Shown one piece after another: positions 12,987-15,836 of a stretch of DNA of 64,000 nucleotides. Numbering within the stretch: position 1 is the stretch's first letter; each line of letters begins with the position of its first letter. The DNA is from Muribaculaceae bacterium (GTDB taxonomy: Bacteria > Bacteroidota > Bacteroidia > Bacteroidales > Muribaculaceae). Position numbers and translations under genes: made by a program. The stretch covers positions 1 to 64,000 of the forward strand of contig JAMPHP010000004.1 of NCBI GenBank assembly GCA_023663365.1, given 5' to 3'. A model generated the notes under the pieces. That model did no database searches. It saw only the letters and a program-made list of their open reading frames with translations, and was not told where the DNA came from.

Positions 12987-13777
12987 AAAATCCACGCATA
13001 GCAGCAGCCATAGTCACCGCAGCAGCTTTTCTGCTGCTCCTGCTTGCCCTCATAGCGGGCAGGCTGAGAGTGAGCGCATCGCAGTGGCCGCCGCTTGCAC
13101 GCACCACCGAGCTGGTGGAAATCGACGAGGAGTTCGTGGACCTCTTCGAGCCTACACCTCGCCCGGCCAACCCGGCACCGGCCTACGCCGCGGCAGAAGC
13201 CGTGCGCGAGTCGACACCCGCCGAAGCCGACGGCAGCGACCTCGACGATGCCGGTGATGCCGCCGCACCGCTCCCTACCGTGGTGAGCGAGCGCCCCTCG
13301 GCAGTACAGAAGCCCAAGAAAGAAACCCCACAAAAAAGCGGCCCCGACAAAAAAGCCCTCGAGGAAGAGCGCGCGCGCCGCAAAGCACGCCAAGGAGTGT
13401 CGAACGCCTTCAAAAACACCACCGAACCTGCCGACAACACCGCCTCGAAAGGCAGTGAGAAAGGCGACACCGGCACCCCCGACGGCGGTGCATCCGACCT
13501 CAACGGCACAGGCTCGGGCAGTGTGGGCGGTGGATGGATCATGCCACGCTATGCAAAAGTGAGCTCGCACCGCACAGGCAGCATTGAGCTGCGCGCCATC
13601 GTCGACAAGGAAGGCCGTGCCATCAGCGTGGAGCTCGAAGGCGGAAAAGCGCCGGCATCGGGCGACCCCGCCCTGGTGTCCCGTTGCATTGCCGAAGTGA
13701 AGCGTCACCGCTTCACCCGCAACGATGACCGCGCCCCCGAGCGCTCAACCGCACGGATTATCTACAACTTCAAGTGA
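12983..13777 (+). CDS. TonB-like energy transducer
   Basis: The 264-residue protein has one N-terminal membrane helix (about residues 8-28). A proline-, lysine- and glutamate-rich linker follows (KPKKETPQKS, KKALEEERARRKARQG), as needed to span the periplasm. The C-terminal domain has IVDKEGRAISVELEGG and CIAEVKRHRFTRN, recalling TonB_C-type folds though diverged. It overlaps exbD by four bases (ATGA), which supports the assignment. It would couple ExbBD to outer-membrane receptors such as that at 53974-55830. A TolA-like role is possible. Confidence 0.8.
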   Translation: MKNPRIAAAIVTAAAFLLLLLALIAGRLRVSASQWPPLARTTELVEIDEEFVDLFEPTPRPANPAPAYAAAEAVRESTPAEADGSDLDDAGDAAAPLPTVVSERPSAVQKPKKETPQKSGPDKKALEEERARRKARQGVSNAFKNTTEPADNTASKGSEKGDTGTPDGGASDLNGTGSGSVGGGWIMPRYAKVSSHRTGSIELRAIVDKEGRAISVELEGGKAPASGDPALVSRCIAEVKRHRFTRNDDRAPERSTARIIYNFK

Positions 13778-13784
13778 AGAAATA

Positions 13785-13884
13785 TATACCCGATAAGGTA
13801 TAAATAATGATGAGTTCAATGATTTTATACCCTTTATGGTGTAAAATAAATTGAATTTGTTATCTTTGCACCCAAAAGGGTATA
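13785..13884 (+). promoter_or_regulatory. Three evenly spaced operators and promoter of the hip locus
   Basis: Three copies of TATACC-N6-GGTATA lie at 13785-13802 (perfect), 13826-13843 (GGTGTA in the right half) and 13867-13884 (TGCACC in the left half). Start-to-start distance is exactly 41 bp both times, about four helical turns, so the sites face the same side of the DNA. A perfect -7 box TATCTTTG at 13861-13868 abuts and slightly overlaps the third site, and the middle site covers the expected -33 region. This fits autorepression by the HipB-like protein encoded immediately downstream, in parallel with E. coli HipB, which binds palindromic operators. Confidence 0.8.
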
Positions 13885-13886
13885 TT

Positions 13887-14090
13887 ATGACTCAATTGGC
13901 ACATTACATAAAGGAAAAGCGAAAGGAATTTGGCCTCACGCAAGTAGATTTATCTCAGAAGTCGGGGGTGGGTCTGCGCTTTGTTCGTGAAATGGAGCAA
14001 GGAAAAGCTTCATTGAGGCTCGACAAAGTAAATCAGGTCTTGGCTCTCTTTGGGGCAGAAATGACTCCTGCAAAAAAATCTGAATCATGA
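13887..14090 (+). CDS. hipB: HipB-like helix-turn-helix antitoxin
   Basis: The ATG at 13887 gives a 67-residue Xre/HipB protein; an upstream TTG-type extension would run through the operators and promoter and was rejected. The helix-turn-helix is LTQVDLSQKSGVGLRFVREMEQGKASLRLDKVNQVLALFG. Such proteins repress their own operon and, in hip systems, help neutralise the HipA-type kinase. The stop overlaps the next start by four bases. The three operators just upstream are its likely binding sites. Confidence 0.88.
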   Translation: MTQLAHYIKEKRKEFGLTQVDLSQKSGVGLRFVREMEQGKASLRLDKVNQVLALFGAEMTPAKKSES

Positions 14091-14425
14091 AGCGGGCTAA
14101 AGTATTGGTGGAAAATTTATTGGCCGGAATTTTGACCGAAGATGATATGGGCTACGAGTTTCAGTACACTTCCGAGTATCTTTCGTCGGAAAAGGCTGAA
14201 GCAGTAAGTCTGACGATGCCATTGTCCGACAAACCGTATAAGAGCAATGTGTTGTTTCCTTTTTTCGACGGACTTATTCCGGAAGGTTGGCTGCTTGATA
14301 TTGCCGAACAATGTTGGAAGATTTCTGCCAGAGATCGATTCTCGCTGTTAGTTGCATGCTGCAAGGACTGCATAGGGAATGTGAGTGTGATTCCATTCGA
14401 TGGAAAGGAGGAGATAGATGGGTAA
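14087..14425 (+). CDS. HipS-like protein (separate HipA N-terminal subdomain)
   Basis: The 112-residue product matches the N-terminal 'couple_hipA' part of HipA: LAGILTEDDMGYEFQYTSEYL, AVSLTMPLSDKPY, then FPFFDGLIPEGWLLDIA, and SLLVACCKDCIGNVSV. In classical HipA this is fused to the kinase core; here a separate gene supplies it. In the E. coli O127 HipBST system the equivalent small protein HipS, not HipB, is the antitoxin, so that role is plausible here. It overlaps the kinase gene by eight bases. No frameshift scar is needed: both genes have their own start and intact motifs. Confidence 0.82.
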   Translation: MKRAKVLVENLLAGILTEDDMGYEFQYTSEYLSSEKAEAVSLTMPLSDKPYKSNVLFPFFDGLIPEGWLLDIAEQCWKISARDRFSLLVACCKDCIGNVSVIPFDGKEEIDG

Positions 14426-15353
14426 GTGTCTTTATTGCTACAAGCCTCTCGATGAGGGAGAAGTGGATTATCATAAGGCTTGCGCACGCAAGATATTTGA
14501 ATCCTCGGTTGTTCCGACGCTTCCTTATTCCCGTGACAAGATAAAAGAGTTGGCCCGGGAGATTGTGTCGGCAAACACCACAGTGACCGGTGTTCAAGCA
14601 AAATTGTCGCTTGATATTGCCCGGGATGCGAAAAAAGAGCCGAAGCGCTTCACCATCGTAGGATTATGGGGACGCTTTATTCTGAAACCACAGACCGAAC
14701 GTTTCGCTAATCTGCCCGAAAATGAAGATTTGACAATGCACTTGGCGGAGACGGCCGGGATAAAGACCGTTCCGCACTCTCTGGTCAGATTTGCCGACGG
14801 TGAACTGTGCTACATAACCCGAAGAGTTGACCGAACAAAGAAAGGCAATAAGATTGCAATGGAGGATATGTGTCAGTTGTCGGAGCGATTGACGGAGGAT
14901 AAATATAAAGGGTCTTATGAGCGGATTGCCAAACTTATTCTTCAGTACTCATCAGCACCATTATTGGATGTTGTCAATTTTTGGGAGGTCGTTGTTTTTT
15001 CGTGGCTGACAGGAAATGCCGACATGCATTTGAAAAACTTCTCGCTTTTCAGACCCTCGACAGCTTATATGCTGACTCCGGCCTATGATTTGATTTCTAC
15101 TGCCATTGTGATGCCCGAAGATGATGAGGAATTGGCACTCACTCTCAATGGAAAGAAGAAAAAGATAAAACGAAGTGATTTTGAGAAAGCCATGCGCGAC
15201 AATGGCATGGATGAAAAGGCTATCGCCAATCTATTCAATAAGTTCGTGAAAGTGCTCCCTAAGTGGCGTTCAATCATCGAAGAATCTTTTCTGCCGGAGG
15301 ACAGGCAGAAAGAGTATATAGAACTGATTGAGCGAATGTCCGCAAGATTATAA
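14418..15353 (+). CDS. HipT-like Ser/Thr kinase toxin with N-terminal zinc-finger-like motif
   Basis: The 311-residue kinase core of the HipA family. Residues 4-22 hold Cys4, Cys7, His19 and Cys22, a small zinc-knuckle-like motif. TVTGVQAK at 55-62 is the glycine-rich loop that in HipA/HipT carries the autophosphorylated serine(s); here both positions are threonine. Lys90 (FILKPQ) should bind ATP, GNADMHLKNFS at 199-209 gives the catalytic Asp202, and PAYDL at 221-225 the metal-binding Asp224. HipA phosphorylates GltX and HipT TrpS; the target here is unknown. The gene is AT-richer than its flanks, consistent with horizontal acquisition. Confidence 0.87.
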   Translation: MGKCLYCYKPLDEGEVDYHKACARKIFESSVVPTLPYSRDKIKELAREIVSANTTVTGVQAKLSLDIARDAKKEPKRFTIVGLWGRFILKPQTERFANLPENEDLTMHLAETAGIKTVPHSLVRFADGELCYITRRVDRTKKGNKIAMEDMCQLSERLTEDKYKGSYERIAKLILQYSSAPLLDVVNFWEVVVFSWLTGNADMHLKNFSLFRPSTAYMLTPAYDLISTAIVMPEDDEELALTLNGKKKKIKRSDFEKAMRDNGMDEKAIANLFNKFVKVLPKWRSIIEESFLPEDRQKEYIELIERMSARL

Positions 15354-15384
15354 GTTCACGGCGTGCCGGACTTCTATGGTAAAC

Positions 15385-15415
15385 TTGTGCATCTAAGCCT
15401 TTTGTGCTATCTTTG
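15385..15415 (+). promoter_or_regulatory. Promoter of the 50-residue membrane peptide gene
   Basis: TTG at 15385-15387, a 20-bp spacer and TATCTTTG at 15408-15415 match the Bacteroidetes consensus. Predicted leader length to the ATG at 15441 is about 20 nt. Confidence 0.75.
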
Positions 15416-15440
15416 CGTGTAGTAAGCCTCGTGTGCCGCC

Positions 15441-15593
15441 ATGAAAAGTGTGAAGCATATATTCGGTTGGATAGCAGTGTCTCCGCTGCTTCTGCTTGCA
15501 CTGATAGTGGTAATCCTCGATTGGATTTTCCACAGTCTTGCTATGCCTCGCTACACCTATTGGCGAATATTCTCTAAACCACCAAACCATTAA
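15441..15593 (+). CDS. Small single-pass membrane protein (50 aa), unknown
   Basis: A short frame with ATG at 15441 encodes 50 residues. The first eight are basic and amphipathic (MKSVKHIF), residues about 9-32 form one strongly hydrophobic helix (PLLLLALIVVILDWIF), and the tail is basic and aromatic (PRYTYWRIFSKPPNH). The canonical promoter 26 bp upstream supports expression. No family was recognised. It lies 88 bp after the hip kinase gene and could be an independent small membrane regulator, a type I toxin-like peptide, or a Bacteroidales-specific orphan. Confidence 0.6.
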   Translation: MKSVKHIFGWIAVSPLLLLALIVVILDWIFHSLAMPRYTYWRIFSKPPNH

Positions 15594-15650: not shown

Positions 15651-15668
15651 CAGCGTCAATCCAATTAA

Positions 15669-15828
15669 GAGGGTGTATAAAAATTATTGTTAAATTTTAA
15701 GTGCCGTATTTTTGAGCTAATCCGCTCTGAATAAGAGGGAGCATAGCTTCCTATGCGACCGATTATGAAGAGTGGAGGAGCCAAAAAGACGGCATACAAA
15801 GCTATTATTAAACTTTGACAACACCCTC
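15669..15828 (+). mobile_element. MITE-like element, 160 bp, with terminal inverted repeats
   Basis: The element begins GAGGGTGT and ends ACACCCTC, a perfect 8-bp terminal inverted repeat. Similarity between the arms continues inward (TGCCGT-TTTTTG in both arms), and the centre is the hairpin GCATAG-CTTC-CTATGC, so the whole unit is one long imperfect palindrome. The flanks both show TAA directly at the ends, a possible 3-bp target duplication (or 2-bp TA). It encodes no protein. This is the build of a non-autonomous MITE mobilised by a transposase elsewhere; the parent family cannot be named from here. Confidence 0.65.
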
Positions 15829-15836
15829 TAAATCCC

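What the first reader, a model, noticed from the sequence alone, without database searches (positions are those of the whole stretch)
13785..13884. Three operators spaced exactly 41 bp apart control a split hip locus
TATACC-N6-GGTATA occurs three times with identical 41-bp start-to-start spacing, and the -7 box TATCTTTG overlaps the third copy. Even spacing near four helical turns suggests cooperative binding or looping by a HipB-like dimer on one DNA face. The half-sites decay from site 1 (perfect) to sites 2 and 3 (one arm changed each), which would give graded affinity. E. coli HipB uses TATCC-N8-GGATA; this variant is distinct.
Basis: partly seen in the sequence, partly recalled or inferred. 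Interest (0 to 1): 0.72.

Follow-up and report, generated by a model that had tools for sequence, protein, structure and literature searches.

The report
Evenly spaced toxin-antitoxin operator triplets
Upstream of a three-gene toxin-antitoxin operon in a gut bacterium lie three copies of a probable repressor-binding site set 41 bases apart; the same spacing recurs in related bacteria even where the site's letters have changed, which suggests that the bound repressor complexes touch one another like pegs on a ruler.

Summary
Observation confirmed: TATACC-N6-GGTATA-like sites at 13785, 13826 and 13867, exactly 41 bp apart, upstream of a hipB-hipS-hipT operon (HipBST; host probably Muribaculaceae). 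Not chance: 81 of 106 loci (window included) carry three or more such sites 39-43 bp apart, 102 at least two; 0 of 2120 shuffles carry two. Spacing SD is 0.56 bp; the array's distance to hipB varies (SD 32 bp).

HipB is very likely the binder: its residue 31 (Arg versus Cys/Ser/Asn) covaries with operator base 5 (C versus T), and a hold-out set with Thr31 also has T. The period is clade-specific: 40-41 bp here, 48-51 in Pseudomonadota loci mostly with fused toxin, 70-73 or 60-62 in Bacteroidota loci nearer Legionella HipBST; one promoter has 71 and 61, about one helical turn apart.

'Graded decay' is not supported: the altered half-sites overlap the -7 box and the expected -33 position. Three evenly spaced HipBST operators are known from Legionella, so this is a new variant of a known kind. 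Binding and cooperativity are inferred, not shown.

The parts
13785..13802 (.). operator 1, perfect palindrome TATACC-N6-GGTATA
   Evidence: DNA similarity to relatives often starts near here
13826..13843 (.). operator 2, right arm GGTGTA; the arm lies where the -33 element is expected (19 bp before the -7 box)
   Evidence: the -33 assignment is inference from a recalled spacing
13867..13884 (.). operator 3, left arm TGCACC overlapping the -7 box and covering the predicted start of transcription
13861..13868 (+). -7 box TATCTTTG (consensus TAnnTTTG); predicted +1 near 13873
   Evidence: sequence; box at -12 to -5 in a flavobacterium according to PMC9723704 (passages); the start site here is inference
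13887..14087 (+). hipB, 67-aa helix-turn-helix protein; Arg31 and Glu35 in the recognition helix
   Evidence: TIGR03070 couple_hipB 4e-24, above cut-off; HTH_3
14087..14422 (+). hipS, HipA N-terminal subdomain as a separate protein (antitoxin by homology)
   Evidence: Couple_hipA 1e-26; HipS(Lp) 7vkb_B 4e-15
14418..15350 (+). hipT, HipA-like kinase (toxin by homology), overlaps hipS
   Evidence: HipA_C 1e-48; HipT(Lp) 8ezr_B 4e-56

Best explanation
The three palindromes are operators of the operon's own HipB. A HipB dimer, alone or as the HipB-HipS-HipT complex, sits on each 18-bp site; sites 2 and 3 cover the expected -33 position, the -7 box and the start of transcription, site 1 extends the array upstream. 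The 41-bp period places neighbouring complexes about four helical turns apart so that they touch, probably through HipT/HipS, giving cooperative autorepression that reads the ratio of antitoxin to toxin. Shown here: positions, spacing, conservation, promoter overlap, amino-acid/base covariation. Inferred: binding, contact between neighbours, cooperativity, toxin as co-repressor.
For: Array conserved: 81 of 106 loci with >=3 sites, 102 of 106 with >=2, 0 of 2120 dinucleotide shuffles with 2. Motif-free scan: best period 40-42 bp in 110 of 122 non-redundant loci. Inter-operator distance 40.8 +/- 0.56 bp (37-45 allowed), array-to-start distance SD 32 bp; mean information 1.7 bits in arms against 0.66 in spacers over 36 loci at 41/41. 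Covariation of HipB residue 31 with operator base 5: T is the majority in 8 of 8 non-Arg loci and in 1 of 112 Arg loci (Fisher 1e-11, not corrected for kinship); two independent changes on a HipT tree, both matched. Hold-out: 16 of 19 loci have Thr31, base 5 is T in 84 of 98 half-sites, best period 39-41 bp in 17 of 19. phmmer aligns residues 6-42 with 4-40 of the 434 repressor, so Arg31/Glu35 fall on 29/33. Published: HipB alone represses hipBST of E. coli O127 at high expression, and HipBST or HipBT already at leaky expression (PMC10627512); HipB(Lp) binds three evenly spaced operators (PMC10653801). The E. coli HipBST hexamer is 135 A across and partly dimerises in solution; 41 bp is about 139 A (my arithmetic).
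Against: No binding or expression data for this protein. The Legionella authors raise intermediate occupancy, in contrast to cooperativity. 41 bp is 3.9 turns at 10.5 bp per turn and the Pseudomonadota arrays (48-51 bp) about 4.7, so 'same face' is only approximate. Solitary hipB genes keep arrays without hipS/hipT, so toxin contact cannot be what maintains the spacing there unless the loss is recent. L105 has Arg31 with T at base 5. The Arg31 arm of the hold-out is weak: C in 5 of 12 half-sites of three loci.
Confidence: 0.82

Rival explanations
1. The spacing is a by-product of the promoter: site 2 must overlap the -33 box and site 3 the -7 box, so their distance is fixed by RNA polymerase, and the repressor molecules act independently.
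For: In 58 of 117 loci the last site overlaps TAnnTTTG, and the preceding right arm carries the -33-like G in 34 of 58 against 11 of 59.
Against: The pair further upstream has the same spacing: 39-42 bp in 93 of 93 loci with three or more sites, where 37-45 was allowed. In the phylum set, where the TAnnTTTG overlap was found once, the gaps are 40-42 bp. Other clades hold other fixed periods.
Confidence: 0.1
2. Three sites are graded: high affinity at site 1, lower at 2 and 3, giving stepwise filling.
For: In the window sites 1, 2, 3 have 0, 1, 2 mismatches; in the 34 family loci with exactly three sites, mean mismatches are 1.21, 1.06 and 1.82.
Against: The order differs elsewhere: in the phylum set site 2 is most often perfect (12 of 21 against 7 and 7). 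The changed letters lie over promoter boxes. No affinity difference was seen in Legionella.
Confidence: 0.12
3. The repeats are remnants of a mobile element or binding sites of another regulator.
For: The operon sits in different neighbourhoods: no aligned piece outside 13700-15450 to any of 80 named loci; plasmid copies exist.
Against: The loci were found through hipB or hipT, and in 102 of 106 the hipB start has at least two spaced sites upstream; operator letters track the HipB recognition helix. A detached pair (L221) and a duplicated array (L200) were seen beside such loci.
Confidence: 0.03

Closest known systems
Legionella pneumophila HipBST and its three operators (PMC10653801; passages read)
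   Same: Three-gene hipB-hipS-hipT, three evenly spaced 18-nt operators with six-nt inverted repeats, one overlapping the promoter, two asymmetric.
   Different: There 53-bp gaps (71 bp start to start if the gap excludes the 18-nt site: my reading), here 23-bp gaps (41). The Bacteroidota loci with TTACTG-N6-CAGTAA at 70-73 bp look like the nearer relatives of that system. The Legionella sequence itself was not fetched.
Escherichia coli K-12 hipBA
   Same: HipB repressor, several palindromic operators upstream of hipB; cooperative binding stated in PMC3376134 (passages).
   Different: Fused HipA; TATCC-N8-GGATA; four sites at 28/39/28 bp, not even.
Escherichia coli O127 HipBST (PMC10627512, PMC8262856; passages read)
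   Same: Same gene order, HipS as antitoxin, HipB as repressor.
   Different: The Legionella authors state that their operator motifs are absent there; its operators were not examined here.
Y4mF-type hipBA of Pseudomonadota plasmids
   Same: HipB relatives (39-48% identity) with three evenly spaced palindromes.
   Different: Toxin annotated as one fused HipA in 12 of 15 loci; motif TTTCCCGnnCGGGAAA or TCATCCCGATCGG; period 48-51 bp.

Membership tests
HipBST tripartite toxin-antitoxin system | separate HipS-like (Couple_hipA) and HipT-like (HipA_C) genes after hipB | tested here: met
HipBST tripartite toxin-antitoxin system | HipT is a kinase neutralised by HipS | not testable with these tools
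   homology only
HipBST tripartite toxin-antitoxin system | HipB represses the operon by binding upstream operators | tested here: inconclusive
   comparative evidence strong; no binding experiment
Legionella-type HipBST operator array | three evenly spaced 18-nt operators | tested here: met
Legionella-type HipBST operator array | 53-bp gaps between operators | tested here: not met
   gaps here are 23 bp
E. coli hipBA operators | TATCC-N8-GGATA, 28/39/28 spacing | tested here: not met

The most novel reading that the evidence does not exclude
HipB-family promoters carry a heritable ruler: three (sometimes four) operators at a clade-specific period of about 4, 5, 6 or 7 helical turns (40-41, 48-51, 60-62, 70-73 bp), set by the size of the repressor-toxin complex, which polymerises along the promoter; operator letters co-evolve with the recognition helix while the ruler stays. 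The clade with both 61- and 71-bp gaps, once within one promoter, changed its ruler by one helical turn.
Probability: 0.45. Interest if true: 0.7.

Novelty: new variant of a known kind. Interest (0 to 1): 0.56.

Why it matters
The Legionella authors named as open questions which HipB residues and operator sites set binding and specificity, and whether intermediate occupancy occurs. The loci gathered here offer natural variants for both: HipB proteins differing at residue 31 with matching operators, and arrays whose period differs by about one helical turn between relatives. They would make it testable whether toxin-antitoxin complexes polymerise on their promoter, and how strictly spacing sets repression.

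Tried and rejected
Rejected: promoter-only origin of the spacing, graded decay, mobile-element remnant (see rivals). A rule of exactly whole turns on one face was weakened by the 48-51 bp arrays; what remains is constancy within clades and the 61/71 step. Second array in the window's genome: 7 palindromes with <=1 mismatch (2 for the reversed control pattern), two of them in the hip locus, none of the other five in a 41-bp pair. Phage records hold no HipB relative at E <= 1e-5.

Scans that failed: L278, L282, L284, L289, L290 and L294 did not clear all 60 mononucleotide shuffles in the motif-free triple scan of 190 bp (a 72-bp period hardly fits); 5 of these 6 (not L290) showed a 61-73 bp gap with the motif. 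In the hold-out L318 and L326 gave no 40-bp period, L332 was reached by 45 of 60 shuffles and L316 by 1. L271 and L272 beat their 100 shuffles by one point only.

Literature: the HipBST search listed 18 papers, passages read in four. Searches for hipB with Bacteroides, operator and palindrom, Y4mF and HipB operator spacing listed nothing that by title treats these arrays; of those papers passages of one, PMC4803016, were read. A search for the 434 contacts found nothing. The library lacks most subscription papers, so absence from print is not shown. The structure prediction never finished and is not used.

Full report
What is there. Three 18-bp inverted repeats at 13785, 13826 and 13867 are spaced 41 and 41 bp; the last ends 2 bp before the hipB start codon at 13887. 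The operon is hipB (67 aa), hipS (112 aa, Couple_hipA) and hipT (311 aa, HipA_C); the best solved relatives by sequence are HipB(Lp), HipS(Lp) and HipT(Lp). Sites with at most two mismatches occur 6 times in 64 kb, three of them here; Markov windows never gave an even triple (0 of 200). The best-matching named relatives are mostly Muribaculaceae or unplaced Bacteroidales MAGs, so the host is probably of that family.

Conservation. A HipB search in 248 genomes of the family and HipT searches in 295 genomes of the order and 296 of the phylum gave the loci of the first count: 49 family loci (the window's own included; L053 dropped for a partial hipB match; weaker hits not read), and the best-ranked 28 order and 29 phylum loci. 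At <=3 mismatches, 34 of 49, 24 of 28 and 23 of 29 hold a chain of three or four sites 39-43 bp apart; 102 of 106 hold at least two; none of 2120 dinucleotide shuffles holds two. With further loci added and duplicates removed, a scan that knows no motif gave 40-42 bp as best period in 110 of 122. The distance between operators is 40.8 +/- 0.56 bp (37-45 allowed), while the last site of the chain starts 14 to 234 bp before the hipB start set by the profile. Of 80 named loci, 28 were scanned (mostly the more distant ones and named species): 22 have three or four sites, 28 at least two, among them Prevotella pectinovora and Pedobacter glucosidilyticus.

Unit of inheritance. Against the 80 named loci, DNA similarity to the window begins mostly near operator 1 or operator 2 (64 of 74 aligned pieces that start between 13700 and 13950 start at 13770-13789 or 13810-13829), ends by about 15350, and no piece lies outside 13700-15450. 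The array therefore travels with the genes. Relatives sit on plasmids, one typed as conjugative in Runella.

Promoter overlap. In 58 of 117 loci with two or more sites the last site overlaps a TAnnTTTG box; its left arm then reads TGCACC or TGTACC in 55 of 58 (the TG follows from the box). The right arm of the site before carries a G at its fourth position in 34 of these 58 against 11 of 59 others (Fisher 1e-5), where a -33 element would lie; at the first site the figures are 10 of 53 and 1 of 46, so part of the excess may be kinship. The imperfect arms are best read as a compromise with the promoter, not as graded decay. In the phylum set site 2 is most often perfect.

Who binds. Loci whose HipB has Cys, Ser or Asn at residue 31 (Asn or Ser at 35) have mostly T at operator base 5 (8 of 8); of Arg31 loci 1 of 112 (L105) has, and two more are ties. 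On a HipT tree of 96 rows the residue changed twice, and both times the operator changed with it; L120 had no HipT row, and the third operator change is L105. Two pairs cannot reach significance by themselves. As a hold-out, 20 intermediate loci were fetched after the prediction was written down; one locus with Thr31 (L296) had been seen before. Of 19 with a hipB, 17 had a best period of 39-41 bp (16 within the predicted 40-42; L332 did not beat its shuffles). Sixteen have Thr31-Lys35, with T at base 5 in 84 of 98 half-sites. The three Arg31 loci are weak: C in 5 of 12 half-sites overall; L325 has C in its three left arms in the motif-free scan, L318 failed. By phmmer residues 6-42 align with 4-40 of the 434 repressor, which puts Arg31 and Glu35 at positions 29 and 33; that these contact bases in 434 is recalled.

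Other rulers. Of 28 Pseudomonadota plasmid records, 15 were read (several near-identical): HipB relatives, 12 with an annotated fused HipA, and three palindromes at 48-51 bp in 15 of 15. Four of the 10 Bacteroidota plasmids were read: 40-41 bp in all four, L272 marginal. Nineteen Bacteroidota loci with a more distant HipT (one of them 56% identical to a Legionella adelaidensis protein, and 36% to the window's) have TTACTG-N6-CAGTAA sites with 21 gaps of 70-73 bp and 8 of 60-62; nine other gaps involve stray or missing sites; 57 sites against 7.7 in mononucleotide shuffles. L289 holds a 71 and a 61 gap in one promoter, with two of its three sites imperfect. The twentieth locus, L296, has TATATG-N6-CATATA at 40/40. 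E. coli K-12 hipBA has 28/39/28. In turns of 10.5 bp the periods are about 3.9, 4.7, 5.8 and 6.8; a repeat of 10.2 bp gives 4.0, 4.8, 6.0 and 7.0 (my arithmetic).

Mechanism. HipB alone represses hipBST of E. coli O127 at high expression, and HipBST or HipBT at leaky expression; the complex is 135 A across and partly dimerises. Complexes on operators 41 bp (about 139 A) apart would just reach each other. I therefore favour cooperative, toxin-assisted autorepression by touching neighbours. Shown: anatomy, conservation, covariation. Inferred: binding, touching, cooperativity.

Known or new. Three evenly spaced HipBST operators were described in Legionella. New here, as far as the searches named in Tried and rejected go: the 41-bp array across Bacteroidota, the residue-31 code, and the set of clade-specific periods.

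Noticed in passing
L006, L008, L015, L024, L041, L050, L052; L246 (Phocaeicola vulgatus ATCC 8482); L273: hipB with two or three spaced operators but no recognisable hipS/hipT within about 1.5 kb (in L246 only fragments remain; in L273 none is annotated, in an incomplete gene table): solitary hipB genes that keep their arrays. They might silence an incoming hipBST with the same operators.
   Followed up: partly
L200:570-720 and L221:2469-2530: A second operator array before a truncated hipB (L200) and a detached operator pair after hipT (L221).
   Followed up: partly
window 15664-15834: Element of about 160-170 bp with 13-bp imperfect terminal inverted repeats; near copies at 93-98% identity in three further places of the genome plus partial ones: MITE-like.
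   Followed up: partly
L067, L068, L086, L087, L251: Four operators instead of three, 39-41 bp apart.
   Followed up: no
L049, L063, L066, L075, L077: Sister group (support 89) of the Cys/Ser31 clade with mixed operators (ACC in one arm, GAT in the other at some sites), a possible transitional state.
   Followed up: no
window 14418-14500: HipT begins with a cysteine pair and further Cys/His (CLYCYKPL...YHKACARKIF), a possible metal-binding N-terminal ribbon.
   Followed up: no
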